A stretch of DNA of 64,000 nucleotides from Nitratireductor luteus (lineage in GTDB: Bacteria > Pseudomonadota > Alphaproteobacteria > Rhizobiales > Rhizobiaceae): NCBI RefSeq assembly GCF_026162365.1, contig NZ_JAOANW010000010.1:124001-188000 (forward strand). Reading direction: 5' to 3'. The notes under the pieces are model-generated. The model was not told where the DNA came from, made no database searches, and was given only the letters and a program-made list of their open reading frames with translations. The first letter of the stretch is position 1. The number at the start of each line of letters is the position of its first letter. Shown in pieces: positions 3,909 to 51,717 of the stretch. Both the position numbers and the translations under genes were made by a program.

Positions 3909-3935
3909 GCTCTCCCTACCCCGCGCTCGACTTGT

Positions 3936-5648: not shown

Positions 5649-5954
5649 GTGCCCGTGCGAGATAAGATCAAATCAAAACAAAGGCTTGAATCGCATCAAC
5701 GGAAGAAGCAAGAGGTGAAAATCCGGCCGCCGGTGCTTAGATCTCAGTCGTGCAAGCGCGAGAATACAACCTTTGAGAGCATTCGCGACTCGCTGATTTC
5801 TCTTTCCGGAAAACTGATTCGAAACGCACCATCGTCAGAGCAAAAAACATTCAGCCCGAAACTGGCCATCGAGGAAAAGCCTAAGGGCCTGACCGAGGGC
5901 CGGCGAGGGATTTTCTGGCTGGCTCAATGCACGTCGCTGCGGCAATTATCGTGA
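5649..5954 (+). CDS. Doubtful small protein, 101 codons
   Basis: The frame opens with GTG 5649 after CCGAGGG and encodes a very basic protein (KIKSKQRLESHQRKKQEVKI near the N-terminus) with no family I recognise. It contains the second repeat copy and runs 31 bases into the 3' end of the converging MerR gene, which argues against it. Codon use lacks the strong third-position GC of the neighbours. It could be a decayed gene or non-coding sequence. Confidence 0.2.
   Translation: MPVRDKIKSKQRLESHQRKKQEVKIRPPVLRSQSCKRENTTFESIRDSLISLSGKLIRNAPSSEQKTFSPKLAIEEKPKGLTEGRRGIFWLAQCTSLRQLS
5764..5782 (+). repeat. Direct repeat copy 2 (ATACAACCTTTGAGAGCAT)
   Basis: Matches copy 1 at 18 of 19 positions, in the same orientation, with starts 158 bases apart. 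It lies between the LysR and MerR genes. Confidence 0.6.
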
Positions 5955-6352
5955 TCCGCCAGGATCTGGATGACGCGACATTCGCACACCTGGCCGTGGC
6001 CGCACCCCTCCACCATCCGCTGCAGCTCGCCTCTGAGCGCCGTCAGGCGCTCGATGCGCTGTTCGATCTCGCGCAGATGACGCCCGGCGATACTGTCGGC
6101 ATCGTGACAGGAGCTCTGCGGCTCCTCCGTCATCGCCAGAAGCTCGCGAATATCGGCCATGTCGAACCCCAGCTCCCGCGCATGGCGTATGAACTTCAGC
6201 CGGTTCAGGTCGTTGTCGTCGAACTGGCGCCGATTGCCCTCGCTGCGCGCGGGCGCGGGCAGCAGGCCGATGCGCTCGTAAAAGCGGATCGTCGGCACCT
6301 TCACGCCACTCCTGCGCGAAGCCTCGCCGATGGTGATCTCGTATGCGGGCAT
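5924..6352 (-). CDS. cadR: MerR-family heavy-metal regulator (CadR/PbrR type)
   Basis: This 142-residue protein begins MPAYEITIGE with SD AAGGA. The MerR HTH is ITIGEASRRSGVKVPTIRFYE, followed by GLLPAPARSEGNRRQF. The metal site cysteines match the Cd/Pb/Zn branch: Cys82 in the SSCHDAD loop, Cys117 after the dimerisation helix, and Cys123/Cys125 in a C-terminal GHGQVCEC segment, with an extra His/Cys tail (HDNC). The protein should bind the dyad at 6364-6382 and switch on the divergent ATPase gene by DNA distortion when Cd(II), Pb(II) or Zn(II) binds. A longer start (6436) would run through that operator and is rejected. Confidence 0.9.
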   Translation of the reverse strand: MPAYEITIGEASRRSGVKVPTIRFYERIGLLPAPARSEGNRRQFDDNDLNRLKFIRHARELGFDMADIRELLAMTEEPQSSCHDADSIAGRHLREIEQRIERLTALRGELQRMVEGCGHGQVCECRVIQILADHDNCRSDVH

Positions 6353-6359
6353 TTTTTCC

Positions 6360-6389
6360 TTGCTCCTATAGCCGCTATAGGAATTAGGC
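6360..6389 (+). promoter_or_regulatory. MerR-type promoter with operator for the metal ATPase gene
   Basis: The dyad TCCTATAGCCGCTATAGGA (6364-6382) has perfect 9-base arms around one central base. It is flanked by TTGCTC (6360-6365, -35) and TTAGGC (6384-6389, -10), giving an over-long spacer of about 18 bases, as in MerR-controlled promoters, where the dyad fills the spacer. It resembles known CadR and ZntR sites (CTATAG arms). It lies 30 bases before ATG 6420. Confidence 0.8.
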
Positions 6390-6419
6390 GTCTCTTCGGG
6401 CGATATCAAGGAACGAAAA

Positions 6420-8645
<2,226 letters not shown>

Positions 8646-8651
8646 CTCTTG

Positions 8652-9578
8652 TTAAGCCCCGCGCGGCGCGCCGATGCGCGCGCGGTGCGGGGCGAACAGG
8701 CAGGCGAACGCCAGTATGATGCCCGACACCGTCGCGATCATGCCCGCCGCGCTCACCGCATTGTCGGCTCCCAGCCACAGCGGCCCATAGCCCGCCAGGA
8801 CATAGCCAAGCACAGCCGAAAGCGTCGCAAACGCAACGCTCCATGCGATCTGGGCCTCCAGACGATTGGTCATCAGCCGGGCAGCCGCCGGCGGGCAGAT
8901 GAACATGGCGATGACGATGATCGATCCCACCGCGTCGAAGGCCGCCACCGCAGCCACCGCAGCAACCACAACGAGTCCGAGGCTGACGGCGGCGGTAGGG
9001 ATACCGACGGCGCTCGCGAACCCTTCGTCGAAGGTGGATAGCTTGAGGGGCCGCCAGAATATCAGGGTCAGCAGCGCTATGAGCCCCGCAGCCGCCGCCA
9101 TTCGGAAAAGCTCCGGCGGCAGATCAGCAAGCGCGGCCGCGTCCGTCAGTGACGACCAGCCTTCCGCCGAGAGCCAGATAAGACTCTCCAGATTTCCGTA
9201 TAGGGCGTGCTCGACGTCCAGATGCACCGCGCTCGTGTCGCTCTGCTCCAGAAGCAGGACTCCGCCGGCAAACAGCGAGGTGAACGTCACCCCCATCGCC
9301 GCGCCCGGCTCGATCCTGCCGATCCGCTTGATCGCTTCGATGATGATGACCGCGACGATCGCCGCGCCGGCCGCCCCCAGCAGCATCGGCCAGGTGGAGA
9401 CGACGCCGGTGATCAGGAACGCCACCACGATCCCCGGCAGCACCACATGGCTGATCGCGTCGCCGATCAGCGCCTGCCGCCGCAGGATCAGAAAGTTGCC
9501 CGGCAGCGCACAGGCAATGGCCGCGAGAACGCCGATCAACAGCGGCGTCAGGCTGAGTTGAACGAATTCCGCGCCCAT
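8652..9578 (-). CDS. sitD: Mn/Zn/Fe ABC importer, second permease (SitD/ZnuB type)
   Basis: This 308-residue protein belongs to the ABC-3 permease family, with 8-9 hydrophobic segments. The family segments LRRQALIGDAISHVVLPGIV near the N-terminus and SIIVIAMFICPPAAARLMTN towards the C-terminus are clear. It is the last gene of the minus-strand operon (binding protein, ATPase, permease, permease), 12 bases after the first permease. It should form a heterodimeric channel with that protein. Its C-terminus is the usual length, so the regulatory extension is confined to its partner. Confidence 0.9.
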   Translation of the reverse strand: MGAEFVQLSLTPLLIGVLAAIACALPGNFLILRRQALIGDAISHVVLPGIVVAFLITGVVSTWPMLLGAAGAAIVAVIIIEAIKRIGRIEPGAAMGVTFTSLFAGGVLLLEQSDTSAVHLDVEHALYGNLESLIWLSAEGWSSLTDAAALADLPPELFRMAAAAGLIALLTLIFWRPLKLSTFDEGFASAVGIPTAAVSLGLVVVAAVAAVAAFDAVGSIIVIAMFICPPAAARLMTNRLEAQIAWSVAFATLSAVLGYVLAGYGPLWLGADNAVSAAGMIATVSGIILAFACLFAPHRARIGAPRGA

Positions 9579-9590
9579 ATTGACCTCTTT

Positions 9591-10805
9591 TCAGCTGAGA
9601 ATCGCCGTCGGCGGGCCGATAACGCGGTCGATTTCCGCGATTTCGTCCCAAGTCAGCACCGTTTCTATGGGCGTCAGCCCGTCATAACGCCCCTCAACCG
9701 CCTCGTCGGCATAGAGCTGGCGCGCGACTGCCCAGCGCTTTTCGTCCCGCAGCGCCTTGGCCGCCTGCGCCCGGCCTTTTTCCGTGGGCACCTGATCCTG
9801 GCGGATGAGCCCTTCACGGCTGAGCACAGAAAGCGTCAGCCGATCGAAGATCGGCTCGTTGTGCGCCAGAGCAAGCAGGCCCTGCCGGCGGTGCACGCGG
9901 AGCTGGAAACGCCGGCGTCGGAACAGCGCCGCCAGCATGCCGCGCCGGGGCGCGAACAGAAGCGACAGAACGAACAGGCCGAAGCTCACCAGCACGATGA
10001 TTGGCCCGGTCGGGAGATTTGGCGCGGACGCCGAAATCGCCGCGCCCAGATAGCCCGAAACGCCGCCGACCGCACCGCCGATCCAGATGACGCGGTCGGT
10101 CCTTTCGGTCCAGAACCGCGCCGTCACCGGCGGAATGATCAGCATCGCGACGATCAATATGAGACCCACGAGCTTGAGGCCGATGACCGTCACCGCCATC
10201 ACCAGCCCCATCATCGCCAGGTCCATCCGACGCACATTGATGCCTGCGGTGGCGGCGAACTCCGTATCGAAGGCGACGAGCGTCATCGGCCGCCGCAGCA
10301 GGATGACCACCGCGACCGCCAGCGCGCCGCCGACCGCGATCACCACCGCGTCGCGGAACAGCATGCCGGCGGTCGAACCGAGCAGGAACCCCTCGAGACC
10401 GGCCTGGTTGCCGCTCGACATAGATTGGATGATGGTGAGAAACACGATGCCGACGCCGAAGAAGACGGAGAGAACCGCGCCTATGGCGGCATCCTCGGCC
10501 AGCCGCGTGCGCCGCGTTATCCACTCCACTGCCAGCAGCCCGAGCCCCGCGGTTACCGCCGAACCGAGCAGAAGCCCGATCAGGTTGCGGCCATCGCCCC
10601 CGAAGGCCACCATGATCATGAAGGCCAGCCCCACACCGGGCAGCGTGGCATGCGCCACCGCATCGCTGACGAGCGCCCTTTTGCGGAGAAACAGGAAGGT
10701 GCCGCCGCTGCCGGCTGCAATACCGAGAAGCGCTGCGCCAAGCGCGACAAGCGCCGCGTTATAGCCCGATTGGAGAACAAGCGCGTTGAGGAAGATGCTC
10801 GACAT
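9591..10805 (-). CDS. sitC: Mn/Zn/Fe ABC importer permease fused to a DtxR-like C-terminal domain
   Basis: Residues 1 to about 285 form an ABC-3 permease (LRKRALVSDAVAHATLPGVG, then LILIVAMLIIPPVTARFW). The remaining 120 residues are soluble: a basic stretch after the last membrane segment, then a winged-helix-like SVLSREGLIRQDQVPTEKGR and a helix AAKALRDEKRWAVARQL. That last part parallels the TEKGR and RHRLWE segments of DtxR/MntR regulators. Similar permease-regulator fusions are known (YtgCR of Chlamydia; long MntC-type permeases of Bacillus). The canonical metal-ligand residues of DtxR are not obvious, so it may be a degenerate sensor or a docking domain. It overlaps no neighbour and sits 7 bases from the ATPase gene. 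Confidence 0.88.
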   Translation of the reverse strand: MSSIFLNALVLQSGYNAALVALGAALLGIAAGSGGTFLFLRKRALVSDAVAHATLPGVGLAFMIMVAFGGDGRNLIGLLLGSAVTAGLGLLAVEWITRRTRLAEDAAIGAVLSVFFGVGIVFLTIIQSMSSGNQAGLEGFLLGSTAGMLFRDAVVIAVGGALAVAVVILLRRPMTLVAFDTEFAATAGINVRRMDLAMMGLVMAVTVIGLKLVGLILIVAMLIIPPVTARFWTERTDRVIWIGGAVGGVSGYLGAAISASAPNLPTGPIIVLVSFGLFVLSLLFAPRRGMLAALFRRRRFQLRVHRRQGLLALAHNEPIFDRLTLSVLSREGLIRQDQVPTEKGRAQAAKALRDEKRWAVARQLYADEAVEGRYDGLTPIETVLTWDEIAEIDRVIGPPTAILS

Positions 10806-10812
10806 GAAGCGG

Positions 10813-11634
10813 CTAACCTACCGGCAGCTTCAGCTGGTCGATATGCGTCGTGGCGAGCCTGCCGCCATAGGTCTTCTGAAGGTTCTCGCCGGTGAACACC
10901 GTCGCCACCGGCCCTTCGGCAATCTTACGCACATTGATCAGAAGGACATGGTCGAAATAGTCGGCCACGGTCGCCAGATCGTGGTGGACACACACCACGG
11001 TACGTTGCTCCGCCTTGAGCGACTTCAACACGTCGATGATCGCCTTCTCCGTCGCAGCGTCGACACCGGCGAAGGGCTCGTCAAGAAGATAAAGGTCGGC
11101 GTTCTGCGCCAGCGCCCGCGCCAGGAACACGCGCTGCTGCTGTCCGCCCGAAAGCTGGCCGATCTGACGATCCGCGAAATCTGCCATGCCCACCCGCTCC
11201 AGGCAGGAAAGGGCGCGCTCGCGGTGGTTCCGCCGCACCAGGCGAACAAGGCCCAACTCGCGATAGAGCCCCATCAGCACCACATCGATGACGCGTGTCG
11301 GGAAATCCCAGTCGACGGAGGCCCGCTGCGGCACATAGGCGATGCGATGCATCGCCTTTTCGACCGGCTGGCCGAATACCGTCACCCGTCCGGAAAGACG
11401 AGGCACGATGCCGAGCGCGGCCTTGAGCAGCGTTGACTTGCCGGCGCCATTTGGTCCGATGATCGCGGTCATGGATTGAGGCGGCACCATTGTGTCGACC
11501 GAAAAGACAGCCGGCTTCTCGCCGTACGACACCGTGAGCTCGTGAACGGCCAACGGGCTGTCCCGCAAATTGACAACCGATGCCGACGGATCCCTGCGGG
11601 CAGCGATATCGATGGGTTCGGCCGCAATCGCCAT
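10813..11634 (-). CDS. sitB: Mn/Zn/Fe ABC importer ATPase
   Basis: This 273-residue cytoplasmic ATPase powers the two permeases. It contains Walker [10 protein letters not shown], the Q-loop at [12 protein letters not shown], signature [15 protein letters not shown], Walker [11 protein letters not shown] and the switch His in VVCVHHDL. The Q-loop sequence [20 protein letters not shown] is characteristic of the manganese/zinc/iron branch. It starts 3 bases after the binding-protein gene stop, so the two are translated together. Confidence 0.92.
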
Positions 11635-11637
11635 CGG

Positions 11638-12624
11638 TCAGCTCCCTGCCGACAATATACCGAGCCGCCCGCGCTCCGGCGCATCGCCACCAAGCGCACG
11701 TGTGATCCCGGTGACATTGTGGTCGATCATGCCGAGATAGGTACCCTCATAGGTGCCATCGGGGCCCATAGCATCGGAGTACAACTGACCGCCGATCACG
11801 ACCTTGTGCCCCTTGGAGCCCGCGCCCTCGATCAGCGCCCGCATATTGCGGTCCGACACGGACGATTCCACGAAGACCGCGCGAATCTTGCGGTCGACCA
11901 GAATGTCGACAAGCTCGGAGATGCGGTTGAGCCCCGCCTCGCTCTGGGTTGAAATGCCCTGAATACCCAACACTTCGAATCCGTAGGCCCTGCCGAAATA
12001 GTTGAAGGCGTCATGCGCTGTCACCAGCATGCGCGAGCCTTCCGGAACACTGGCGGTAACCTTCTTGGCATAGGCGGAAAGGTCCGCGATCTCCTTCAAA
12101 TGCGCCTCGGCGTTTTGCGTAAAGACCTCTTTGGCCTCCGGGCGCTCCGCGATGAGAGCGTCGCGTACCGTGACGACGACCTTCGACCACAGGTCGGGGT
12201 CCATCCACACATGCGGATCGTACTTGTCCTGATAGATATCGTGCGTCAGAAGAAGGTCTTTGGGCAGGCTTTCCGCAACGGCCACCACATCCCGCCGCTT
12301 TTCCAGATCGTGCATGAAGTCTTCCATCTGGGCCTCCAGATAGAGCCCGTGCCACAAGACGAGATCGGCCTTGGTCATTGCCAGGATGTCGGTGCGGGTC
12401 TGGCGATAGGCGTGCGGATCGACGCCCGGCCCCATCAGCGCCTTCACTTCGACCTGATCGCCACCGACCTGGCGGGCGGCATCGGCGATCATGCCCGTAG
12501 TGGCCACGATCGAGAGCGGCTGCTGAGCAGATGCGGGCAGAGCGCTCAAGGGCACAATACCCAAGGCTACTATAAAAAGTGCGAGCCCCGACAAAGCCCG
12601 CCGCAAACCGTCAATCATATCCAC
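11638..12624 (-). CDS. sitA: Metal-binding periplasmic protein of the importer (TroA/SitA type)
   Basis: This 328-residue cluster A-I binding protein has a cleavable signal peptide (hydrophobic segment about residues 10-28, ASA cleavage near 32). The expected metal ligands are His71 (GVDPHAY), His138 (DPHVWMD), His204 (TAHDAFNYF) and Asp301 (GMIDHN). That is the His/His/His/Asp set of TroA, which accepts both Zn and Mn. It lacks the His-rich loop of dedicated ZnuA proteins. The operator upstream looks like a manganese (Mur) box, so Mn(II) is my favoured substrate; Zn or Fe remain possible. Confidence 0.9.
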   Translation of the reverse strand: MDMIDGLRRALSGLALFIVALGIVPLSALPASAQQPLSIVATTGMIADAARQVGGDQVEVKALMGPGVDPHAYRQTRTDILAMTKADLVLWHGLYLEAQMEDFMHDLEKRRDVVAVAESLPKDLLLTHDIYQDKYDPHVWMDPDLWSKVVVTVRDALIAERPEAKEVFTQNAEAHLKEIADLSAYAKKVTASVPEGSRMLVTAHDAFNYFGRAYGFEVLGIQGISTQSEAGLNRISELVDILVDRKIRAVFVESSVSDRNMRALIEGAGSKGHKVVIGGQLYSDAMGPDGTYEGTYLGMIDHNVTGITRALGGDAPERGRLGILSAGS

Positions 12625-13262: not shown

Positions 13263-14495
13263 TCACCCCGCCTGCCGGACCGCCGGCATCCGCAACGCGG
13301 ACATGCTCATGACGACGGCGATTGCCGTGCATGCCGCTGCGAACACCAGGAAGCTTCCGGCAACACCCGTTTGCGCCGCCGCGAACCCCGATACGAGCGG
13401 AGATACGAACTGCCCGCTGAAAAGGGCTGTGGTCATCAGCCCGGCCGCCCGGCCGCGCTGCTGCGGGGCCACGAACTGCATGAAATGAGCCATGAAATTC
13501 GGGATCAAAGGTCCGATTGCCAGTCCCGAAATTGCCATTCCGGCGACAATCCCGGCAAAATTGAAGGCCAAGGACAGAATAGTCAGCCCCGTGGCGAGGC
13601 AGACAAAGCCCCAGGCGAAAACGGCGTGGGCCGAAAGCCGCTGGCGAATTCTGCCGTAACTCAAAGAGCCAGGCAGGGCACAGAGCGTCACCAGCGCGAG
13701 TGCGACACCGCTGAGCATCGGTCCGTCGATGCCGATCTCCACCAGCCGGAATGGAACGCGCGTCGGCAGAATGTAGAATATGGCCATGAACAGGAACGCG
13801 AGCGACCCGATCCGGGCAAACTGGGTCCACGGAAAATCCTGGCTATCGGCCTGTGCCCCATATTCGCCCGCATTTTTCCGCGCCCCGGCATATTTCGGCC
13901 CGCGCAGCACGACGCCGGCATAGACTGCCAGGGGAAGCGCGATCAAATAGGCCGCGAAAGCCCAGCGCCAGCCGAAGCCGGCGAGAAAGCCGCCCACAAG
14001 CACAAAAATGATGCCGCCAAAACTCATGGCTGCGCTCTGCCGGCCCATGAAGCGCTCGCGTGCGCCGGCTTGCCAGAGGTCGGCCGCATAAGCCCCGGCG
14101 AGCGTCATGGTGCCGGCGACGCCGATGCCTAATACCGCCCGACCGAGCAAAAGCCCCGGTATGCTGTCGAGAACGAGCCCCGATGCGCCACCAAGAGCGT
14201 ACACGATCATCGCGAGGACGAGCACGAGACGGCGCTCTGTCCGGTCGGCGACCCAGCCGATCAGGGCAGCGGTGAAAACGACGAAGATCGAGGGAAGGGT
14301 AAGGATCAGCCCGCTGAGCACCTCGATATGCGGTGTCTCGCTGAAGGCCTCGCGCAAACCCGGCAGGGACGGCGCGATCGTGGCATTCGCCATGACCGTG
14401 AGCGCCGACGTCGCCAGGATAGCGAAAGTCACGGCGGCCGGGACGGGCGCGGCCGTCTCCTGTGTTACCCCGCCCTGTACCGATTGACTGGACAT
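13263..14495 (-). CDS. MFS transporter, probable drug or metabolite exporter
   Basis: This 410-residue protein has 12 predicted membrane segments. The MFS motif A is visible between segments 2 and 3 as GWVADRTERR, with a long RxxxGxG-type segment in the fourth helix (LLLGRAVLGIGVAGTMTLAGA). The N-terminal tail is short and hydrophilic. The family exports drugs or takes up small acids, and the substrate is not predictable. The divergent LysR gene starts 117 bases away and probably controls it, a common arrangement. Confidence 0.88.
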   Translation of the reverse strand: MSSQSVQGGVTQETAAPVPAAVTFAILATSALTVMANATIAPSLPGLREAFSETPHIEVLSGLILTLPSIFVVFTAALIGWVADRTERRLVLVLAMIVYALGGASGLVLDSIPGLLLGRAVLGIGVAGTMTLAGAYAADLWQAGARERFMGRQSAAMSFGGIIFVLVGGFLAGFGWRWAFAAYLIALPLAVYAGVVLRGPKYAGARKNAGEYGAQADSQDFPWTQFARIGSLAFLFMAIFYILPTRVPFRLVEIGIDGPMLSGVALALVTLCALPGSLSYGRIRQRLSAHAVFAWGFVCLATGLTILSLAFNFAGIVAGMAISGLAIGPLIPNFMAHFMQFVAPQQRGRAAGLMTTALFSGQFVSPLVSGFAAAQTGVAGSFLVFAAACTAIAVVMSMSALRMPAVRQAG

Positions 14496-14612
14496 GTATC
14501 ATCTTCCTTTGCTGGCCCAAATCGTGGCGCGGCGGGAGGCGTCCCGCCTTGCATCCCTCCTTCTCAAATGACATGATTAGGAACAAGTCTGCGGGTATTG
14601 GAAAGACTGTGC

Positions 14613-15539
14613 ATGAATATGGATAATGAACTCGACCTTGCCGCGCTTCGCGTTTTTCATGCCGTCGTGCGAGAAGGTTCCTTTGCCGGTGGCGCCCGCC
14701 GCCTCGGCGTACCGCGCTCCACGGCATCCAAGCGCGTGGTCGATCTGGAACGATTGCTCGGCGTCCGGCTTATCGAACGCACGACGCGGCAGATGCGGGT
14801 TACGACCGAGGGTGAGGTGCTTGCCCTGCGCGCGGAGCGGCTTCTGGCGGAAGCAGGTGACATACGCCGCTCGCTAAGCGATGCGGGACAGGCGCCCCGC
14901 GGCCATCTGCGCATCGCCGTGCCGCAGCTCTTCGGGCAGATCATGATGGGCGGTATCGCGGCGAGATGCAGGGCTCGTTATCCCGAGATCACGCTCGAAT
15001 TCGTCTTCACCGACCGCCCCCCGGATCTCATTGAAGAAGGCTTCGACGCCATGATCCGCTTCGGACCGCTGGAAGACAGCACGCAGGTGGCGCGACGCAT
15101 ATCCACTGGTGCCCCGGTTCTCGCCGCCTCACCCGGCCTGGCCGGCATCGAGACTTTGGCGCACCCGCGCGATTTGATCCGGTTCCCGCTGATCGACGTC
15201 CCACTTCACTGGCGGCAAGGATGGACCTTCCATCGAGAGGACGATGTCGAGCTCATCCGCATAGAGCCGGCGCTGCGCTTCTCCTCTATGCTCGCCGCCC
15301 GCGATGCTGCGGTCGAAGGCGCCGGCATCACGCAGCTCCCGGCCATTCTGGCACGGCCGGAAATAAAGGCCGGCCAACTGGTCCGCCTCCTGCCGGAGTG
15401 GCAGGGTGCGGAGAAATCCATGTATTTCGTGTTCGCGTCGCCGCAGTCGGTCACGACCCGCCTGCGCGCCTTCCTCGATGTGCTCCTTGAGAGCCTGAAA
15501 TCGAGAAGCGAAGCTACTTCGGCTTTGGAGCCGTCCTAA
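14613..15539 (+). CDS. LysR-family transcriptional regulator
   Basis: This 308-residue protein has its N-terminal HTH as LDLAALRVFHAVVREGSFAGGARRLG followed by PRSTASKRVVDLERLLG, then the family segment RLIERTTRQMRVTTEG. The effector domain (about residues 90-295) contains GHLRIAVPQLFGQ and DRPPDLIEEGFDAMIRFG, typical of the large LysR subgroup that regulates adjacent exporters or reductases. ATG 14613 is preferred over TTG 14598. It is divergent from the MFS gene. Its stop codon overlaps the manC stop by two bases in a tail-to-tail arrangement. Confidence 0.88.
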   Translation: MNMDNELDLAALRVFHAVVREGSFAGGARRLGVPRSTASKRVVDLERLLGVRLIERTTRQMRVTTEGEVLALRAERLLAEAGDIRRSLSDAGQAPRGHLRIAVPQLFGQIMMGGIAARCRARYPEITLEFVFTDRPPDLIEEGFDAMIRFGPLEDSTQVARRISTGAPVLAASPGLAGIETLAHPRDLIRFPLIDVPLHWRQGWTFHREDDVELIRIEPALRFSSMLAARDAAVEGAGITQLPAILARPEIKAGQLVRLLPEWQGAEKSMYFVFASPQSVTTRLRAFLDVLLESLKSRSEATSALEPS

Positions 15540-43710: not shown

Positions 43711-43802
43711 GGATGTGCGATTTCTGGAGGTTGTCCCTTTGTACGCCCCGGACAACTCAGGAATGCGGGGGAACATTGAGGCAGCTTTCGTGTTCAACAG
43801 CC

Positions 43803-44375
43803 ATGGTGGATTTGACTGGCCATCTCGCAAACCATATGGCTCTGCACATCCTGGCGATGAACTTGCTGGCGCCAGCCCTAGTATATGCGCGGCATCGGGC
43901 GCGGCGAAACGTTTTGCTGCCGTCGACCGGTATCGCGACATCGTCCGCCTTGCAGCTTGCGATCTTATGGGCCTGGCACGTTCCAGCGGCCTTCGCTACG
44001 GCCTCTACTCAACCGATCATGGCCGCTGCGATGCATCTTTCGCTGTTGCTGGCGGCGCTCCTGTTCTGGCGCGCGGTATTTCACGCCGCAAGCGTCTCGC
44101 CATGGCGTTCGATCGCCGCTCTTCTGGTGACCGGAAAGCTGTTCTGCCTGCTTGGCGTCCTTCTCGTCTTTTCGCCCCGGCCGCTTTACGAGCCAACGGG
44201 TTATCCGGCCACCATGTCCACGGCCATCCTGCTGGCTGATCAGCAAATGGCGGGCCTGCTCATGCTCATCATCTGCCCCCTTACCTATGTGCTCGCCAGC
44301 ATCATAATCGCGCACCGCTGGATCGCCTCGGACGAGCAGAAGGGTGGATGGCTTTTCGAGCGGTTGCGGCCGTGA
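43803..44375 (+). CDS. CtaG-like cytochrome c oxidase assembly protein
   Basis: This 190-residue membrane protein resembles the caa3-type CtaG family. It has about five hydrophobic segments with conserved His and acidic positions: NHMALHILAMNLLAPAL, ILWAWHVPAAFATAS, AMHLSLLLAALLFWRAV and LADQQMAGLLMLIICPL. Family proteins help to insert copper into oxidase. It is shorter at the N-terminus than many relatives; ATG 43803 is the first start before the conserved core, although the frame is open back to 43674. Its stop overlaps the start of the cytochrome c gene (GTGA). Confidence 0.8.
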   Translation: MVDLTGHLANHMALHILAMNLLAPALVYARHRARRNVLLPSTGIATSSALQLAILWAWHVPAAFATASTQPIMAAAMHLSLLLAALLFWRAVFHAASVSPWRSIAALLVTGKLFCLLGVLLVFSPRPLYEPTGYPATMSTAILLADQQMAGLLMLIICPLTYVLASIIIAHRWIASDEQKGGWLFERLRP

Positions 44376-45478
44376 GATTGCATTATCCGCGTGATCTGAG
44401 CTGGCGAAGGGCGTTGCTCTGGCTTGTGGCCTACTTGGCGATAGGTGCAGTCGGAGCCACGCTCTTTGCCGCCTCGGGCATCTACAATGTCGCGGCCTCC
44501 GTACAGCATTTCCAGATAACGGAGCGCATCATCAAGTTCGTTCTCAACCGGTCGGTCGCAGTCCACAGTCCCGACGAAGTGCCGACGGATATCGGCGACG
44601 ACCGCCTGGCACAACTGGGTGCACGCCATTTCCGGCTTGGCTGTGCCCCATGCCATGGCATGCCCGGCGAGGACGCCAGTCCGGTCATGCAGCAGATGTA
44701 CCCCGCGCCTCCGAGGCTTGAGCACGCCGCGCTGAAATGGGAGGCGGCCGAACTCGCCTGGATCATCGACAATGGGCTGAAATTCACCGGCATGCCGGCC
44801 TGGGCCGGGCAGGGTAGAATGGACGAGGTCTGGGCGTTGGTCGCCTTCCTGCGCCGTCTGCCAAATGCAGATAAACAGGAAATCTCCGAACTTGCCGGCG
44901 GCCCCGATGGGATTCCCATGCTCGCCGATCAATCGACGGTAGCGCAATCCTGTATCTCCTGCCATGGAAACCAGGAGCAGCCGCCGGTCTCGCCGGAAGT
45001 ACCATCGCTTTCCGGTCAGCCTCGGGCCTATTTGCAGCGCGCATTGTTGGAATACCGCGCCGATCTGCGCCAGAGTGGCATGATGGAGCCGATCGCCGAG
45101 GCGCTTGACGATGCAGCGATCGAACGTCTCGCCAGCCGCTTCGCCGCTCAATCACTGCCTGTCGCGCAAAACCTGGAACTGACACGCGGAGAAGTCGATC
45201 GCGGCCGGACCATCGCCACGGTCGGACATCCGGGTGGCAACGTGCCGCCATGCCTTTCATGCCACGGCGCCGGAGCTTCGGAACTGTTCCCGCGGCTTCG
45301 AGGGCTCTCGCAAGAATATATCGTCGGCCAGTTGCACCTCTTCCAGTCAGGCTCCCGCAGCCAGACCGCGTATGGTGCGATCATGTCGACCGTAGCCCGC
45401 CGTCTGACAGCCGAAGACATGGAAGACGTCGCAGCCTTTTTCGCTGGTCAGCCTGAAGCGAGGACCGCCGGCCGATGA
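44372..45478 (+). CDS. Membrane-anchored three-haem cytochrome c
   Basis: This 368-residue protein starts at GTG 44372 inside the stop region of the previous gene. A single N-terminal membrane helix (about residues 15-35, ALLWLVAYLAIGAVGATLFAA) anchors three c-type haem domains: CAPCH (about residue 92), CISCH (about 194) and CLSCH (about 299). An axial Met is visible in FTGMPAWAG. The second and third domains resemble the tandem cytochrome c4/c554 type. It should pass electrons to the cytochrome domain of CoxB. Its stop overlaps coxB by four bases. Confidence 0.9.
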   Translation: MRLHYPRDLSWRRALLWLVAYLAIGAVGATLFAASGIYNVAASVQHFQITERIIKFVLNRSVAVHSPDEVPTDIGDDRLAQLGARHFRLGCAPCHGMPGEDASPVMQQMYPAPPRLEHAALKWEAAELAWIIDNGLKFTGMPAWAGQGRMDEVWALVAFLRRLPNADKQEISELAGGPDGIPMLADQSTVAQSCISCHGNQEQPPVSPEVPSLSGQPRAYLQRALLEYRADLRQSGMMEPIAEALDDAAIERLASRFAAQSLPVAQNLELTRGEVDRGRTIATVGHPGGNVPPCLSCHGAGASELFPRLRGLSQEYIVGQLHLFQSGSRSQTAYGAIMSTVARRLTAEDMEDVAAFFAGQPEARTAGR

Positions 45479-46467
45479 CGTGGCATGCGCGCATAGCATC
45501 CCTCGGCGGGATGCTCCCCATTCTTGCCGGATGCGGCGGCGTCCAGTCGGCACTGGAGACGACAGGACGCGAGGCGGCGGACATATATTTCCTGTTCATC
45601 GTAGCCACGGCGCTCAGCATAGCCATCACGCTGCTGGTTCTGGTCCTGCTCGTGGTCGTTCTGTGGGGGCCGTCGAAATGGCGCGACCGGCTTGGCTCCG
45701 ACCGGGTCGTGATCGGCGGCGGCGTTGTGCTGCCGATCGTCCTGCTCAGCCTGCTGCTCGGCTACGGCCTATTCGTTCTGGACGCGGGCGCCTCGCGCAC
45801 CGCGCACGCCAAAGATGACGGCATCACGATCGTCGGCAAGCGCTGGTGGTGGGAGGTCGCCTATGCCACGGCTGACGGTGAACAGGTTGTCAGCGCCAAC
45901 GAATTGCGCCTACCGGTGGGGCGGCCCGTGACCCTTCACCTTGAAAGCGACAACGTGATCCACAGCTTCTGGGCTCCCCAACTCGCCGGCAAACTGGACA
46001 TGATACCAGGCCGCACCAACAGTCTGGTCGTCGAAGCGACGGAGCCGGGCGTCAGTCGCGGCCAATGCGCGGAATATTGCGGTGGGGCGCACGCGCTCAT
46101 GGCCTTCTTCATCATAGCCATGCCGCCCGATGAATATGATGCTTGGCTGCAGGAGGAAGCCGCGCCGGCACGCGCACCCGAGACCGGGATTGCGCAGCGT
46201 GGCCAAGCCCTTTTTCTCGAAAATGGCTGCGGTGCCTGCCACACGGTGCGCGGAACCCAAGCCGGCGGGACGATCGGCCCCGACCTCACCCATGTCGGCT
46301 CACGCCGCTCGCTGGCGGCAGCGACCCTTCCCAATGATGCGGAGGCCTTTGCCCGCTGGATCAAGGACAATCAGCACATCAAGCCCGAGAACCTGATGCC
46401 TCCCTACGAAAACCTCGAGCCGGACGATCTTACCGCCATAGCGGCATATCTGGAGGGGCTGGATTGA
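45475..46467 (+). CDS. coxB: Cytochrome c oxidase subunit II fused to cytochrome c
   Basis: This 330-residue caa3-type subunit has a lipoprotein signal (PILAGC, Cys20), two membrane helices (about 37-62 and 79-102), and a cupredoxin domain with a complete CuA site: His163, Cys198, Glu200, Cys202, His206 and Met209 (GQCAEYCGGAHALM). The C-terminal cytochrome c domain carries CGACH (Cys252, Cys255, His256) and the axial Met of ENLMPPY. Electrons enter through haem c, pass to CuA and then to subunit I. Its stop lies 3 bases before the next gene's ATG. Confidence 0.94.
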   Translation: MTWHARIASLGGMLPILAGCGGVQSALETTGREAADIYFLFIVATALSIAITLLVLVLLVVVLWGPSKWRDRLGSDRVVIGGGVVLPIVLLSLLLGYGLFVLDAGASRTAHAKDDGITIVGKRWWWEVAYATADGEQVVSANELRLPVGRPVTLHLESDNVIHSFWAPQLAGKLDMIPGRTNSLVVEATEPGVSRGQCAEYCGGAHALMAFFIIAMPPDEYDAWLQEEAAPARAPETGIAQRGQALFLENGCGACHTVRGTQAGGTIGPDLTHVGSRRSLAAATLPNDAEAFARWIKDNQHIKPENLMPPYENLEPDDLTAIAAYLEGLD

Positions 46468-46469
46468 AC

Positions 46470-47543
46470 ATGCCTGACTTCAGCGCGCTCCCCCTACCCC
46501 TGAACCTCGTGCTTTTCACGGCGGGGGCCGTTGTCGTGTGGTTCGCCGGCAGCCGCCTCACCTATTATGCGGACGCCATCAGCAACGCCACGGATATCGG
46601 CCAGGCCGCCATCGGCATCATGCTCCTGGCGGGCGTTACCTCGCTTCCCGAAATCGGCGTGACGGCCACCGCTGCTATTGCCGGCAATGCCGACCTCGCC
46701 GTCAACAACCTTTTCGGCAGTATCGCGCTGCAGGTGGCCGTGCTTGCCGTGGTCGACTTCCTGATCGGAAGAAAAGCGCTTACTGCAGCGGTGGCTGATC
46801 CCACCGTCATTCTCCAGGGCAGCCTCAACATCATCATGATTTCGGCGGCCGCCGCGGCAATGGTCATCGGCGATGTCAGCGTCTTCGGTGTCGGCTTGTG
46901 GGCGTGGGGAGCGATCGCCGCCTATGTCTCCTGCATCCACATACTGTCACGGGGACGAGGGCGCCGGCCCTGGCTCGCCGCCGGCAACGAGCGCGTGGAA
47001 CGGGAGCCGGTCGGGGAGAACCAGGACCACGGCTCGTCAGCCTCCGACCGCGAGTCCAAAACCCTGCGCAGCCTCGTTGTAAAGACTGCCGGGGTCGCGG
47101 CGATCATCCTCGTGGCGGGATATGTCGTCGCCAAGTCCGGCGAAGCGATCGCGGAACAGACCGGCCTCGGTTCAAGCTTTGTAGGTTTCGTGCTGGTCGC
47201 CATTGCCACTTCCCTGCCGGAGCTCAGCACCGCCCTGTCGGCCGCAAGGCGCGGCCTTTTCACAATGGCGATATCCGACATCCTGGGCACCAACCTGATC
47301 AATATCGCGATGATCTTCCTGGTCGACCTGCTCGACACCGGTGAGCCGGTGATCGGTCGCATGGGCCCCTTCGCGATTTTCGGCGCGTTGCTGGCGGTGG
47401 TGCTGACGGCGCTGTTTCAGGCTGGCGTGGCTGAGCGGCGCGACAAGGCCATCCTGCGCATGGGCTACGACTCTCTGCTGGTGCTCATCGTATATGTCGG
47501 CGGCGTCGTCCTTCTCTATACCTTGCGGAGCACGGGAACATGA
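46470..47543 (+). CDS. CaCA-superfamily cation exchanger (Na+/Ca2+ exchanger fold)
   Basis: This 357-residue membrane protein has two inverted alpha-repeats. The first reads GVTSLPEIGVTATAAIAGNADLAVNNLFGSIALQ, the second ATSLPELSTALSAARRGLFTMAISDILGTNLIN. The G-x-SLPE acidic residues and Asn/Ser positions of the cation sites are present in both halves. A charged loop of about 40 residues separates the halves. Such proteins exchange Ca2+ (or K+, Na+) for H+ or Na+. Its coupling between coxB and the fused subunit I/III gene, with a 3-base gap before and a 4-base overlap after, is unusual. Confidence 0.9.
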   Translation: MPDFSALPLPLNLVLFTAGAVVVWFAGSRLTYYADAISNATDIGQAAIGIMLLAGVTSLPEIGVTATAAIAGNADLAVNNLFGSIALQVAVLAVVDFLIGRKALTAAVADPTVILQGSLNIIMISAAAAAMVIGDVSVFGVGLWAWGAIAAYVSCIHILSRGRGRRPWLAAGNERVEREPVGENQDHGSSASDRESKTLRSLVVKTAGVAAIILVAGYVVAKSGEAIAEQTGLGSSFVGFVLVAIATSLPELSTALSAARRGLFTMAISDILGTNLINIAMIFLVDLLDTGEPVIGRMGPFAIFGALLAVVLTALFQAGVAERRDKAILRMGYDSLLVLIVYVGGVVLLYTLRSTGT

Positions 47544-50077
47544 GCAACGCGAACCACAAGCTTCCCAATCCGGAACCGCGCTCCGAACGCGAAGTCGACG
47601 AACTCCTGCGCATTTGGGCGACACCCAAAGGCTGGAGGATCATAACCGCCGTCAACAACACGGTGATCGGCCTCCTCTACATTGGTGCCGCTTTCCTCTT
47701 CTTCCTGATGGCCGGGGCGTTGGCGCTCTTGATGCGGACACAGCTGGCTGTGCCGGAGAACGATTTCCTCAGCCAGGACTTCTACAATCAGATCTTCACC
47801 GTGCATGGCACCACGATGATGTTCCTGTTCGCCGTGCCGGCGGTAGAAGCCCTGGGGGTGATGCTCCTGCCTCAGATGCTCGCCGCGCGCGACCTTCCCT
47901 TTCCGCGCCTCAGCGCCTTTGCAATCTGGGCCTATGTGGTCGGCGGCCTCGTCTTCTTCTCGACCGTTTTCTACGACCTGGCGCCCAAGGGCGGCTGGTT
48001 CATGTACACGCCGCTGACGCTGAAGGAGTTCTCGCCCGGCGACAATGCCGATTTCTGGCTGCTTGGCATCGGCTTCATCGAAATCTCGGCCATCGCCGGC
48101 GCGGTCGAGATTGTCGTCGGCACGCTACGCACCCGCCCGCCGGGAATGTCGCTGACCAAGATGCCGATCTTCGCGTGGTCGATGCTGATCTTCGCGGCCA
48201 TGATCATGTTCGCCTTCCCCGCGGTTATCCTGGGAACGATGCTGCTCGAGATTGAGCGTTCCTTCGGTTGGCCGTTCTTCACCGCAGCCAAGGGCGGTGA
48301 TCCGCTGCTCTGGCAGCACCTGTTCTGGTTCTTCGGCCATCCGGAAGTCTACATCATCTTCCTCCCGGCGGCGGGCCTTGTTTCGATGATCGTTCCGACC
48401 ATGGCCCGCCGGCCGCTGATCGGCTACCGGCTGATCGTGGTAGCGCTTATCGGCACAGGTTTCTTCTCGTTCGGCCTGTGGGTTCATCACATGTTCACCA
48501 CGGGTATTCCCACGCTCAGTCTCGCCTTTTTCTCGGCGGCGAGCATGGCTGTCGCGATACCGTCCGGCATCCAGGTCTTTTCCTGGATCGCCACCATGGC
48601 GGCGAGCAAGGGCCGCTTCCGCATCAACACGCCATCGCTCTTCGTGATCGGCTTCCTCGTCATCTTCACGATCGGCGGAATGACCGGCATAATGGTGGCT
48701 CTGGTGCCGGTGGATTTCCAGGTGCACGACACATATTTCGTGGTCGCCCATTTCCACTATGTGCTGATCGGCGGAATGGTGTTTCCGCTTTTCGCCACCT
48801 TCTACTACTGGATGCCGATGGCGACGGGAAAGCTGTTGTCGGAAGCGCTCGGCCGCTGGGTGTTCTGGTTGATGTTCGCCGGCTTCAACATCGCCTTCTT
48901 CCCGATGCACGTAACGGGCCTGCGGGGCATGCCGCGCCGAGTGTGGACCTATCCCGGCGATCTTGGCTGGGATGCGCTTAACATGGTCTCGACCGTCGGC
49001 GCCTATATCTTCGCCGCCGGCGTGCTCGTCTTCCTGTTCGACCTTTCGCGCAGCCTCCTTTACGCCAAGGCCGCACCGGACAATCCGTGGGGAGCCGGCA
49101 CTCTCGAATGGCTGCCGAACGACCTTTACGCCATGCGCAGCATTCCCTTTGTCACCAGCCGCGAGCCGGTATGGGACCGGCCCAGCCTTCCCGAGGAAGT
49201 AAGGGCCGGGCATCACTTTCTGCCCAATGCGCCGACCGGAGGGCGCGAGACGATCGTCACCTCAGCCGTCGAAGCGGAACCGCAATACATCATCCAGATG
49301 CCCGGTCCCGGCTGGGCGCACCTGATCGCCGCAGTATTCACGGCGGCGTTCTTCCTGTTGCTGACGGTCAAGATCGTCGTGCCGGCGATCATCTGCGGCA
49401 TTGTCGCCATCACCGCCTGCCTGGTCTGGGCATGGGGCCTCGATCCCGGGCCGTCCAAGGGAGAAGTGGAAATCGGCGCCGGCATCCGGCTCCCCACCTA
49501 TGCGAGCGGTCCCTCGTCCCATTCCTGGTGGGCGATGATCGTGCTGATCTTCGTCGCCTCCTCTCTCTATATCGCCTATGTCTTTTCGTACCTCTATCTA
49601 TGGGTGGTCTCTCCGGACGTCTGGGCGCCGCTTGGCTCTCCGGCCCTGCCGCCGCCCGCCTGGCCGGCGGCGAGCCTTCTGCTGACGCTGGCCGGCACGG
49701 CGGCAATATGGCTTGCGGGCCGCCTGCTTCCCGCCCCCGGCACGCGCAATGCCGTATCCCCGGGCCTCAACGCGGCGGGGGCGCTATGCCTCGTCGCCGC
49801 CATTGCGCTGGAAATCCTCGGACACTGGGGCACCGGGTTGCGTCCGACCGAAAATGCCTATGGCGCGCTGGTCTACATGCAGAGCGCGCTGAGCGGCCAG
49901 CTCGCCTTCGCCATTTTCATCATGAGCGGCTTCGCGGTCGCCCGGGCGGTGACGGGCAGGCTAGACCGCGTGCGCCGGGTCAGCTTCGACAACTGCGCCG
50001 TGCTCTACTATTACGCGGCGCTTCAACTTGTCGTCGGCCTGCTTTTGATTCACGGGTTCCCAAGGGTGGCGGGCTGA
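47540..50077 (+). CDS. ctaD: Cytochrome c oxidase subunits I and III fused
   Basis: This 845-residue haem-copper oxidase core reduces O2 to water and pumps protons. Subunit I metal ligands are complete: His89 and His406 (low-spin haem a), His404 (haem a3), His267, His316 and His317 (CuB), and the cross-linking Tyr271 in GHPEVY, with Glu269. From about residue 660 a subunit III-like part (SSHSWWAMIVLIFVASSLYIAYVFSYLYLW) follows, as in some caa3 oxidases. The K-channel lysine position is Gln345 (PSGIQVFSW), and the D-channel NN pair after FPR is Ser125-Ala126, while the entry Asp118 is kept. The ATG overlaps the exchanger stop. Confidence 0.94.
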   Translation: MSNANHKLPNPEPRSEREVDELLRIWATPKGWRIITAVNNTVIGLLYIGAAFLFFLMAGALALLMRTQLAVPENDFLSQDFYNQIFTVHGTTMMFLFAVPAVEALGVMLLPQMLAARDLPFPRLSAFAIWAYVVGGLVFFSTVFYDLAPKGGWFMYTPLTLKEFSPGDNADFWLLGIGFIEISAIAGAVEIVVGTLRTRPPGMSLTKMPIFAWSMLIFAAMIMFAFPAVILGTMLLEIERSFGWPFFTAAKGGDPLLWQHLFWFFGHPEVYIIFLPAAGLVSMIVPTMARRPLIGYRLIVVALIGTGFFSFGLWVHHMFTTGIPTLSLAFFSAASMAVAIPSGIQVFSWIATMAASKGRFRINTPSLFVIGFLVIFTIGGMTGIMVALVPVDFQVHDTYFVVAHFHYVLIGGMVFPLFATFYYWMPMATGKLLSEALGRWVFWLMFAGFNIAFFPMHVTGLRGMPRRVWTYPGDLGWDALNMVSTVGAYIFAAGVLVFLFDLSRSLLYAKAAPDNPWGAGTLEWLPNDLYAMRSIPFVTSREPVWDRPSLPEEVRAGHHFLPNAPTGGRETIVTSAVEAEPQYIIQMPGPGWAHLIAAVFTAAFFLLLTVKIVVPAIICGIVAITACLVWAWGLDPGPSKGEVEIGAGIRLPTYASGPSSHSWWAMIVLIFVASSLYIAYVFSYLYLWVVSPDVWAPLGSPALPPPAWPAASLLLTLAGTAAIWLAGRLLPAPGTRNAVSPGLNAAGALCLVAAIALEILGHWGTGLRPTENAYGALVYMQSALSGQLAFAIFIMSGFAVARAVTGRLDRVRRVSFDNCAVLYYYAALQLVVGLLLIHGFPRVAG

Positions 50078-50078
50078 C

Positions 50079-50450
50079 ATGAGCGAACGTGAGGACTTTT
50101 TTCCGCCAACGAGGAAGCCTTCGACAACCGGCACCCTGGTCTATCTCATGTTCGGTCTGCTGGTCTGGGCGGCGCACCTCACCATTGTCTATGGCGGCCA
50201 TACGCTGCTTTGTGCGTTGGGTTTCCCGCCGGAAGCGGCAAGCTGGCTGGTGATTGCGGCGACAGCGGGCGCGATGCTTGTCGTTGTGTGCTTCCTCACA
50301 TGGCGGAAGCCGTGGGCTCGGATGACAAGCCTGCCGCCCGACCGGACAATAGACCTGATCGCCCGCCTGATCGCCATTCTGTCGCTCGTCGACATTTTGT
50401 GGGCAGGCGCGGCTATCGCCTTCGTAACCTCCTGCTCCCAAGGGAGGTAG
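50079..50450 (+). CDS. Small three-helix protein of the oxidase operon
   Basis: This 123-residue membrane protein has three hydrophobic segments (about residues 20-42, 52-72 and 95-117). It begins 1 base after the oxidase stop, so it is translated in the same operon. I recognise no named family. The position suggests a subunit IV-like accessory protein. His residues in the first helix (WAAHLTIVYGGHTLL) could bind metal or haem, but this is speculation. Confidence 0.75.
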   Translation: MSEREDFFPPTRKPSTTGTLVYLMFGLLVWAAHLTIVYGGHTLLCALGFPPEAASWLVIAATAGAMLVVVCFLTWRKPWARMTSLPPDRTIDLIARLIAILSLVDILWAGAAIAFVTSCSQGR

Positions 50451-50572: not shown

Positions 50573-51445
50573 CTAAAGCATCGGACGGCCGCCGGTGACC
50601 TCGATCAGCGCTCCGGTCGTATAGCTCGCCTCGGACGATGCCAGGAGCACATATGTCGCCGCCAGTTCCGCAGGCTGACCTGGTCGTCCCATCGGCGTGT
50701 TCTTACCGAAGTTTTCTACCCTCTCCGCCGGGAGGGTGGAAGGAATGAGCGGGGTCCAGATCGGCCCGGGCGCGACGGCGTTCACCCGCACACCATCGTT
50801 CGCGACCATGCCGGCAAGGCCGGCAGTGAAATTGGCAATGGCGCCCTTGGTTGTCGCGTAGGCAAGCAGCGAAGGCGACGGGTCGGTCGCGTTGATCGAC
50901 GATGTATTGATGATCGAAGAGCCCGGCTTCATATGCCGCAGCGCCTCCTTGCACAGATAGAACATCGCATCGACATTCGTGCGGAACGTCAGATCCCACT
51001 CCTCCGTCGTGATGTCGTCGATGCTCGCGAAGCTCGCCTGATGCGCCGCATTGTTGATCAGTATGTCGAGGCGGCCGAACTCGTCCAATGTGCGCTTCAC
51101 AAGCGACTTGCAGTGGCTTTCGTCACCGATGTCGCCCGGAGCCAGGATTGCCTTGCGCCCAGCATCTTCTACCCAGCGGGCGGTTTCCTCCGCATCGCTA
51201 TCCTCGTTCAGATAGGAGATGACGACATCGGCTCCCTCCCGTGCGAAGGCAATCGCGACCGCCCGCCCTATCCCGGAATCCCCGCCCGTGATCAGCGCTA
51301 CACAATCAAGCAGCCGGCCGTGCCCCTTGTAACTGTGCTCGCCGTGATCCGGCGTCGGATCCAGTTCAGCCGTCAGGCCTGGCATGTCCTGGCGCTGTTT
51401 CGGAAATGGCGGTTCGGGATATCCGGTTCGTAGATCATTTGCCAT
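50573..51445 (-). CDS. SDR-family NAD(P)-dependent oxidoreductase (YhdF/YghA type)
   Basis: This 290-residue protein has the long N-terminal extension typical of general-stress SDRs (YPEPPFPKQRQDMPG, then DPTPDHGEHSYKGHGRL), the cofactor motif ITGGDSGIGRA, NNAA and the catalytic Ser and Tyr-x3-Lys in SSIN...YATTKGA. Relatives act on small alcohols, aldehydes or sugars and are often stress-induced. ATG 51445 begins with MANDLRTGYPEPPFP, which matches the family N-terminus. It stands alone, divergent from an alpha/beta hydrolase gene. Confidence 0.9.
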   Translation of the reverse strand: MANDLRTGYPEPPFPKQRQDMPGLTAELDPTPDHGEHSYKGHGRLLDCVALITGGDSGIGRAVAIAFAREGADVVISYLNEDSDAEETARWVEDAGRKAILAPGDIGDESHCKSLVKRTLDEFGRLDILINNAAHQASFASIDDITTEEWDLTFRTNVDAMFYLCKEALRHMKPGSSIINTSSINATDPSPSLLAYATTKGAIANFTAGLAGMVANDGVRVNAVAPGPIWTPLIPSTLPAERVENFGKNTPMGRPGQPAELAATYVLLASSEASYTTGALIEVTGGRPML

Positions 51446-51717
51446 GGCAGACCTCAATATTGAACCGTCAAACCTGCCAGTACAGGTTTTGTTCCAGTGA
51501 CGTGATCGGAAGCACATCGCTGAAAATTGGGTCCCCAAGGTTCGCCTGATTTGGACCTGTTCGGGGGCCATTCCAGAAATCAGGATGCCGCCTGAACTCA
51601 ATGGCTGGAGACCAACAATTGCACCGGCGGCTGTTCCTTTCGCTGACGGCAGTGCCAATGCTGCCCACTTCTTTTCCGTCCTCAGTCACGGCACAAGCAG
51701 CTCAGGAGAAGAACGAT

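What the first reader, a model, noticed from the sequence alone, without database searches (positions are those of the whole stretch)
43803..50450. Cation exchanger built into a caa3-type oxidase operon
A CaCA-family exchanger gene lies between coxB and the fused subunit I/III gene with a 3-base gap and a 4-base overlap, so all are coupled. The operon also has a three-haem cytochrome c and an extra small membrane protein. A stable link between a respiratory proton pump and a Ca2+ (or Na+/K+) antiporter would be a new functional unit.
Basis: partly seen in the sequence, partly recalled or inferred. Interest (0 to 1): 0.7.

Follow-up and report, generated by a model that had tools for sequence, protein, structure and literature searches.

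The report
Stress-linked oxidase operon with ion exchanger
In many alphaproteobacteria a gene for a sodium/calcium-type ion exchanger sits between two core genes of a respiratory oxidase, in an operon that carries the mark of general-stress control; the link is old and selected, but some lineages have lost the exchanger and kept the oxidase.

Summary
The window carries a six-gene operon: ctaG, three-haem cytochrome c, coxB, a CaCA exchanger, subunit I with a probable subunit III part (coxAC), and a small three-helix protein. It is no chance insertion: the exchanger lies at exactly this place in 22 of 31 operons of one well-supported oxidase clade, over six GTDB families, S. meliloti pSymB included. 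It is under purifying selection, keeps both SLPE motifs and has the NCX fold. Likeliest history: one gain, then repeated loss; nine operons lack an intact exchanger, five with scars, and no residue elsewhere in the operon tracks it. So it looks like a coupled accessory transporter, not an obligate subunit. New here: an EcfG/RpoE2-type promoter motif precedes ctaG in 25 of 30 operons, 1.7 expected. I read it as a general-stress respiratory module whose antiporter exports Ca2+ or a similar cation at the expense of respiration. Ion, direction and physical association are untested. My searches found no report of it.

The parts
43770..43794 (+). EcfG/RpoE2-type promoter motif GGAAC-N17-GTT upstream of ctaG
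   Evidence: motif upstream of ctaG in 25 of 30 operons; consensus recalled; the same motif flanks the host's nepR locus (L135)
43803..44375 (+). ctaG, caa3 oxidase assembly membrane protein (longest ORF from GTG 43674)
   Evidence: PF09678 E 3.6e-17
44348..45478 (+). three-haem c-type cytochrome
   Evidence: PF13442/PF00034; three CXXCH in 31 of 31 operons
45475..46467 (+). coxB, subunit II with C-terminal cytochrome c domain (caa3 type)
   Evidence: PF00116, TIGR02866, PF00034 at 240-329; one CXXCH in 31 of 31
46470..47543 (+). CaCA-family cation exchanger (NCX/YrbG-like), SLPE in both repeats
   Evidence: PF01699 E 7e-23; E63 and E253 invariant; model mean pLDDT 81, best PDB matches NCX_Mj
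47540..50077 (+). coxAC, oxidase subunit I with probable subunit III part; K-channel Lys position is Gln345
   Evidence: PF00115 E 9e-148; COX3 part only weakly shown
50079..50450 (+). small three-helix membrane protein, also found in 6 of 9 exchanger-free sister operons
   Evidence: model mean pLDDT 89; no Pfam family over cut-off for the window protein, no PDB fold match at E<=0.001

Best explanation
A respiratory module of the general stress response. EcfG turns on one transcript that makes a caa3-type cytochrome c oxidase (subunit II with its own cytochrome c domain, subunit I probably fused to III), its three-haem electron feeder, its assembly factor CtaG, and an NCX-type cation antiporter made in step with the oxidase by translational coupling. 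The oxidase builds proton-motive force under stress (osmotic shock, drying, heat, starvation). The antiporter spends part of it, directly with H+ or through Na+, to expel Ca2+ or a similar cation that enters stressed cells. The exchanger is a partner by co-expression and shared energy, not an essential subunit, and can be lost. SHOWN by computation: gene order, age of the link, selection, fold, conserved ion-binding Glu, promoter motif, repeated loss. INFERRED: EcfG dependence, ion, direction, energetic coupling.
For: Same order in 22 of 31 operons; oxidase clade supported at 99, with 9 exchanger-free sister operons (56-66% identity) outside it. Operon exchangers form one clade, 90/88. dN/dS of the exchanger 0.08-0.26 over 8 pairs, coxB 0.10-0.24 (dS above 1 in five of the 8 exchanger pairs, so those values are rough). 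Both SLPE motifs, D272 and G275-N277 invariant in 21 of 21 aligned (an intact 22nd, L042, was left out there). NCX_Mj is the best PDB match by profile and by fold. GGAAC-N16-18-GTT upstream of ctaG in 25 of 30 operons; random 450-base windows average 1.7 of 30, maximum 7 in 1000 trials. The host has nepR with the same motif facing both ways beside it. In G010 a sister-type exchanger follows a distant oxidase of this kind on the same strand.
Against: No expression or transport data were seen. The main text of the S. meliloti RpoE2 promoter paper (PMC3616915, word search and passages) does not hold 'cytochrome'; its supplements could not be read. The motif is missing in 5 of 30: L098 in the window's family and L114, L116, L117, L121 in two other families, so stress control may not hold there. 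The reverse strand of the same windows has the motif in 8 of 30. The exchanger was lost repeatedly with the oxidase kept. The K-channel Lys is Gln in 44 of 44 aligned oxidases, so proton pumping by this oxidase is itself unproven.
Confidence: 0.5

Rival explanations
1. The exchanger is a physical accessory subunit of the oxidase: it sits in the complex beside subunits II and I and exchanges a cation locally against the protons that the oxidase moves.
For: Gene lies between coxB and coxAC with 2-base gap and 4-base overlap; same place in 22 of 22 operons that have it intact.
Against: Eight operons lack it with the rest found; no residue of the partners tracks its presence; in two operons (L042, L121) the exchanger tree disagrees with the oxidase tree, so exchangers look replaceable.
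Confidence: 0.15
2. The exchanger serves oxidase or cytochrome c biogenesis, by setting Ca2+ (or another metal) in the periplasm for metal sites or for cytochrome c maturation.
For: The operon also holds the assembly factor ctaG.
Against: Oxidase operons without it are common; the SLPE motifs speak for NCX-like cations, not copper. Metal sites of the oxidase were not tested here.
Confidence: 0.12
3. The exchanger acts as a relief valve or pH/voltage balancer: it lets protons or Na+ back in against a cation when respiration overshoots under stress.
For: Gene overlap with the oxidase gene; EcfG-type promoter motif.
Against: No direct evidence; direction of transport unknown.
Confidence: 0.12
4. 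Historical accident: an exchanger gene landed once in a good stress operon and is kept for its own separate job.
For: Homologues of the sister subfamily lie elsewhere without cox genes found nearby; 4 of 8 genomes that lost the operon copy, and 2 of 12 that kept it, have a homologue of 40% or more elsewhere (p 0.16).
Against: Retained at one place over six families at down to 48% identity; five further exchangers of other subfamilies lie within 10 kb of oxidases of this kind, 0.23 expected (one of the five, in G105, is beside an operon that already has its exchanger).
Confidence: 0.11

Closest known systems
caa3-type cytochrome c oxidase, A family, with fused subunit I/III (Thermus I+III, 2yev, listed; COX operon type a of Degli Esposti, PMC4013037, passages seen)
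   Same: Long COX1 with C-terminal extension, subunit II with cytochrome c domain, ctaG nearby, active-site motifs kept
   Different: An exchanger gene inside the operon, a three-haem cytochrome c, an unassigned three-helix protein, and Gln in place of the K-channel Lys
NCX_Mj, Na+/Ca2+ exchanger of Methanocaldococcus jannaschii (3v5u, 5jdm)
   Same: Fold (5jdm: TM 0.68 by query, 0.82 by target) and SLPE in both alpha-repeats
   Different: About 18% identity; in the window protein Gln at the N81 position and Thr at the S236 position (NCX_Mj numbering recalled), an extra Asp (D272); encoded in an oxidase operon
EcfG/RpoE2 (PhyR-NepR) general stress regulon of Alphaproteobacteria
   Same: GGAAC-N16-18-GTT upstream, host has nepR
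   Different: Dependence not measured; no caa3 operon named in the passages seen of PMC3616915
Mrp antiporters and their kin in complex I (recalled, no call)
   Same: Idea of an antiporter coupled to a respiratory enzyme
   Different: Unrelated protein family; here no sign of an obligate complex

Membership tests
CaCA superfamily (Na_Ca_ex) | Two alpha-repeats with acidic ion-binding motif | tested here: met
   PF01699 E 7e-23 over cut-off, two stretches; SLPE at 60-63 and 250-253 invariant in 21 of 21
CaCA superfamily (Na_Ca_ex) | NCX/CAX fold | tested here: met
   Foldseek: the 25 best rows are NCX_Mj, CAX, NCLX, YfkE or VCX1; 20 rows have E<=0.001
CaCA superfamily (Na_Ca_ex) | Ca2+ or other cation exchange | not testable with these tools
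   needs transport assay
NCBIfam TIGR00367 calcium/sodium antiporter | Curated score cut-off | tested here: not met
   89.3 bits against 179.65: related, not filed as that family
A-type (caa3) haem-copper oxidase | Subunit I family and active-site residues | tested here: met
   TIGR02891 693.3 bits over 670.75; H267, E269, Y271, R466, R467 in 44 of 44; HH and HxH motifs in the printed rows
A-type (caa3) haem-copper oxidase | Subunit II with cytochrome c domain | tested here: met
   TIGR02866 151.6 over 147.7, PF00034 at 240-329
A-type (caa3) haem-copper oxidase | Subunit III present (here as fusion) | tested here: inconclusive
   no COX3 match for the window's part; PF00510 E 0.01 (16.2 bits, cut-off 23.8) for the S. 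meliloti one; none for three others
A-type (caa3) haem-copper oxidase | Lys in the K channel (K354 of Paracoccus, recalled) | tested here: not met
   Gln in 44 of 44 rows; the four PDB relatives printed have Lys
A-type (caa3) haem-copper oxidase | Haem a and a3, proton pumping | not testable with these tools
   needs spectra and proteoliposomes
EcfG general stress regulon | EcfG-type promoter | tested here: met
   25 of 30 upstream regions, the window among them, 1.7 expected
EcfG general stress regulon | Host has EcfG/NepR/PhyR | tested here: met
   NepR E 1.4e-15; neighbouring sigma-factor-like and PhyR-like ORFs seen in L135 by eye, not scanned with profiles
EcfG general stress regulon | Loss of expression in an ecfG mutant | not testable with these tools
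   -

The most novel reading that the evidence does not exclude
The operon makes a stress-induced respiratory supercomplex in which a caa3 oxidase without the usual K-channel lysine and an NCX-type antiporter work as one machine, so that oxygen reduction directly drives Ca2+ (or other cation) extrusion.
Probability: 0.1. Interest if true: 0.85.

Novelty: new variant of a known kind. Interest (0 to 1): 0.52.

Why it matters
It links three things usually studied apart: a terminal oxidase, a calcium-type antiporter and the alphaproteobacterial general stress response. A standard laboratory symbiont (S. meliloti, pSymB) carries the whole operon, so it can be tested at once. Natural exchanger losses beside kept operons give ready-made comparisons, and the Gln in place of the K-channel lysine in the whole oxidase clade tests how essential that lysine is.

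Tried and rejected
Chance insertion: rejected by the survey. Non-functional exchanger: rejected by dN/dS, invariant ion-binding residues and fold. Link between exchanger and the K-channel Lys-to-Gln change: rejected, since Gln is in 44 of 44 rows, with or without exchanger. Strict subunit: weakened by repeated loss. Compensation by a paralogue after loss: 4 of 8 against 2 of 12, p 0.16, not shown. Genomes with the close oxidase clade are richer in such homologues, 6 of 20 against 4 of 277, p 8e-6 (counts read by me). Small protein as a known subunit: no match. Subunit III part of coxAC: only one weak match (one search shows that the distant L050 oxidase shares this part, 27% identity).

Literature: all ten searches; those asking for exchanger or antiporter with the oxidase were 8, 11, 12 (no paper), 44 (20 of 24 papers listed) and 66 (15 of 55 listed, none with 'calcium exchanger'). 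Most subscription journals are not in that library, so 'no report' is limited to it. Searches asked about the K channel and gave nothing to the point.

Slips. A first motif scan missed the window because I took the wrong ctaG start (43674); the scan from 43803 found it. In one search the column labelled N131 was one residue off (it reads the Leu before it); the right column shows Ser, Gly or Thr in the rows printed. Losses number nine operons if each is separate; the tree needs 10 changes of the label, 9 forced by starred branches, but re-gain by exchange is possible (L042, L121), so I claim the five with scars: L091 and L097 (internal deletions), L099 (broken), L093 (coxB runs into the stop-and-spacer sequence that ends the exchanger of its nearest relative L042), L094 (the first codons of the exchanger run into coxAC). 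L099 is a second copy in G105 whose coxB is also out of frame, so only eight operons show loss with the rest kept. The expectation uses place lists copied by hand: 60 of 61 exchanger rows (a second piece in G105 left out) and 130 coxAC rows (the last five, weakest, left out), and a uniform 5 Mb genome.
Full report
WHAT IS THERE. The window holds a + strand operon of six genes: ctaG, a three-haem cytochrome c, coxB with a C-terminal cytochrome c domain, a CaCA exchanger, a long subunit I gene (coxAC, with a probable subunit III part) and a small membrane protein. coxB ends at 46467, the conserved ATG of the exchanger is at 46470 and its stop overlaps the ATG of coxAC by four bases. The host genome holds one further exchanger gene (G000:C2), 32% identical, not on the contig of the coxAC match.

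IS IT CONSERVED. In 297 genomes of the GTDB family, 53 had an exchanger match at E<=1e-20 and 111 a coxAC match at E<=1e-180. The coxAC matches fall into a close set of 21 places in 20 genomes (71% identity or more) and the rest (52% or less). In the close set the exchanger is intact between coxB and coxAC at 12 of 21 places and not at 9 of 21. In 397 genomes of the order, with coxAC matches taken at E<=1e-300, six genomes of three other families (f5, f6, f34) have a coxAC of 72-75%, and 6 of 6 have the exchanger in place; nine genomes with coxAC of 56-66% have no exchanger match at E<=1e-30 in the genome and none in the fetched operon regions. In 385 genomes of the class, two more, outside the order (f144, f196), have the full operon; coxAC was not searched there, so operons without exchanger in the class at large are not counted. 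In 219 genomes of the phylum no further operon exchanger was found at E<=1e-50 (the one other hit, G821, has no cox match in its short flanks). A named genome scan gave two loci with the full operon, one of them apparently the same contig as G291. Plasmid records: 84 with an exchanger match at E<=1e-30, 65 of them Sinorhizobium; S. meliloti 1021 pSymB has all six genes in order. One Azospirillum and one Leisingera record that I opened show no cox gene beside the match.

HISTORY. A tree of 44 coxAC proteins puts the 31 operons of the close clade together (support 99), with nine exchanger-free operons and four more distant ones outside. Twenty-two of the 31 have an intact exchanger. The 22 exchangers form one clade against 19 others (90/88; 88% of 200 bootstrap trees), broadly following the oxidase tree, but L121 and L042 sit elsewhere than their oxidases, which points to exchange or re-gain. 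Loss left traces: L091 and L097 keep about 50 first codons and the last few; in L093 coxB runs into the stop-and-spacer sequence that ends the exchanger of L042; in L094 the first codons of the exchanger run into coxAC; L099 is broken into pieces in two frames. L099 is a second copy in its genome and its coxB is out of frame as well, so it is a decaying operon rather than a clean loss. The exchanger was thus most likely gained once near the base of the clade, kept over long times, and dropped several times.

SELECTION AND STRUCTURE. dN/dS over eight pairs is 0.08-0.26 for the exchanger, 0.10-0.24 for coxB and 0.05-0.15 for coxAC (synonymous sites are near saturation in the more distant pairs). 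S60-E63, S250-E253, D272, G275-N277 and Q90 are invariant in 21 of 21 aligned operon exchangers. By alignment to NCX_Mj the two SLPE glutamates correspond to E54 and E213 (numbering recalled). The AlphaFold model (mean pLDDT 81, pTM 0.82; residues 170-198 below 50) finds NCX_Mj first among PDB chains, then CAX, NCLX and YfkE. It is thus very likely a working cation exchanger; which cation is unknown.

REGULATION. GGAAC-N16-18-GTT, the EcfG/RpoE2-type promoter (consensus recalled), lies upstream of ctaG in 25 of 30 operons whose upstream DNA is at hand (18 of 22 with exchanger, 7 of 8 without; L094 left out, contig edge), against a mean of 1.7 and a maximum of 7 of 30 in 1000 sets of random windows from the same loci. 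The five without it are L098, L114, L116, L117 and L121. The reverse strand of the same stretches has 8 of 30, more than chance too, perhaps because neighbours are stress genes. Four of the nine sister operons have it within about 200 bases upstream of the aligned ctaG start on the same strand. The window's copy is at 43770-43794, close to the ATG at 43803. The host has nepR, and the motif faces both ways beside it, towards nepR with a sigma-factor-like gene and towards a PhyR-like gene. Dependence on the sigma factor is therefore likely but not measured.

HOW IT PROBABLY WORKS. I read it as a general-stress respiratory module: oxidase, its electron feeder and assembly factor, plus an antiporter made in step with them, which uses the gradient built by respiration to remove Ca2+ or a similar cation. 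The dispensability of the exchanger, and the lack of any residue in the partners that tracks it (largest frequency differences 0.46-0.60, 95% permutation limits 0.64-0.71), speak against a strict subunit. A second, different association supports a functional tie: in G010 a sister-type exchanger lies behind a 42%-identical oxidase of this kind on the same strand, and with four more exchangers of other subfamilies (one of them, in G105, beside an operon that has its own exchanger) five in all lie within 10 kb of such oxidases, against 0.23 expected for random placement (hand-copied lists, simple uniform model).

WHAT IS KNOWN. A word search of the main texts of two papers on alphaproteobacterial and bacterial oxidase operons found none of the words calcium, antiporter or exchanger (PMC4013037; PMC6431628; passages seen). 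Passages of PMC2912261, PMC10315480 and PMC3596328 and PMC3616915 do not name this operon. Ten full-text searches gave no report of a CaCA gene in an oxidase operon (listings only, beyond the papers just named). One annotated S. meliloti plasmid record calls the gene 'sodium:calcium antiporter' and the next gene ctaD, so the parts are annotated; the conserved unit and its promoter seem undescribed.

A SIDE RESULT. In 44 of 44 aligned subunits I, with or without exchanger, Gln stands where A-type oxidases have the K-channel Lys, and Val or Ile at the N113 position; the rows printed have Ser, Gly or Thr at the N131 position. The K-channel change is a property of the wider oxidase clade and not of the exchanger link, but it makes the energetics of this oxidase an open question.

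None of these changed my odds.

Noticed in passing
window 48572-48574 (coxAC residue 345): The K-channel Lys position of subunit I is Gln (PSGIQ) in 44 of 44 aligned alphaproteobacterial oxidases of this kind, with or without the exchanger; D124 and E278 equivalents are kept.
   Followed up: partly
window 50079-50450: Small three-helix membrane protein with W30, Y38, C45 and C119 invariant in 21 aligned members, no known family or fold; found also in exchanger-free sister operons.
   Followed up: partly
L091 7930-8200, L097 11870-12200, L093 6770-6900, L094 2370-2510: Natural losses of the exchanger that leave remnants of it while coxB and coxAC stay side by side.
   Followed up: yes
L050 (G010:C11) 3211-9300: A distant oxidase operon of this kind with a sister-type exchanger behind it on the same strand: a second, different association.
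   Followed up: partly
L048 3598-6135, L050 10242-12743: Sister-type exchangers lie beside a large protein joining an epimerase domain, SPW repeats and a VKOR domain.
   Followed up: no
L038 2265-3332, L006 13655-14791, L100 10393-11706, L133 11435-12466, L132 about 13990-15030: Further, distant CaCA exchangers (27-32% identity) lie within 10 kb of oxidase operons of this kind.
   Followed up: partly
window 51471-51495: EcfG-type motif on the - strand inside the longest ORF of the SDR dehydrogenase (50573-51658) but just ahead of a later in-frame ATG, so perhaps its promoter; the gene ends facing the operon.
   Followed up: no
L121 and L042: Exchanger tree and oxidase tree disagree for these two operons, suggesting swap or re-gain of the exchanger inside a fixed operon.
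   Followed up: no
L099 (G105:C2) 5700-12300: A second, decaying copy of the operon: exchanger in pieces and coxB out of frame, while the genome keeps an intact copy on another contig.
   Followed up: partly
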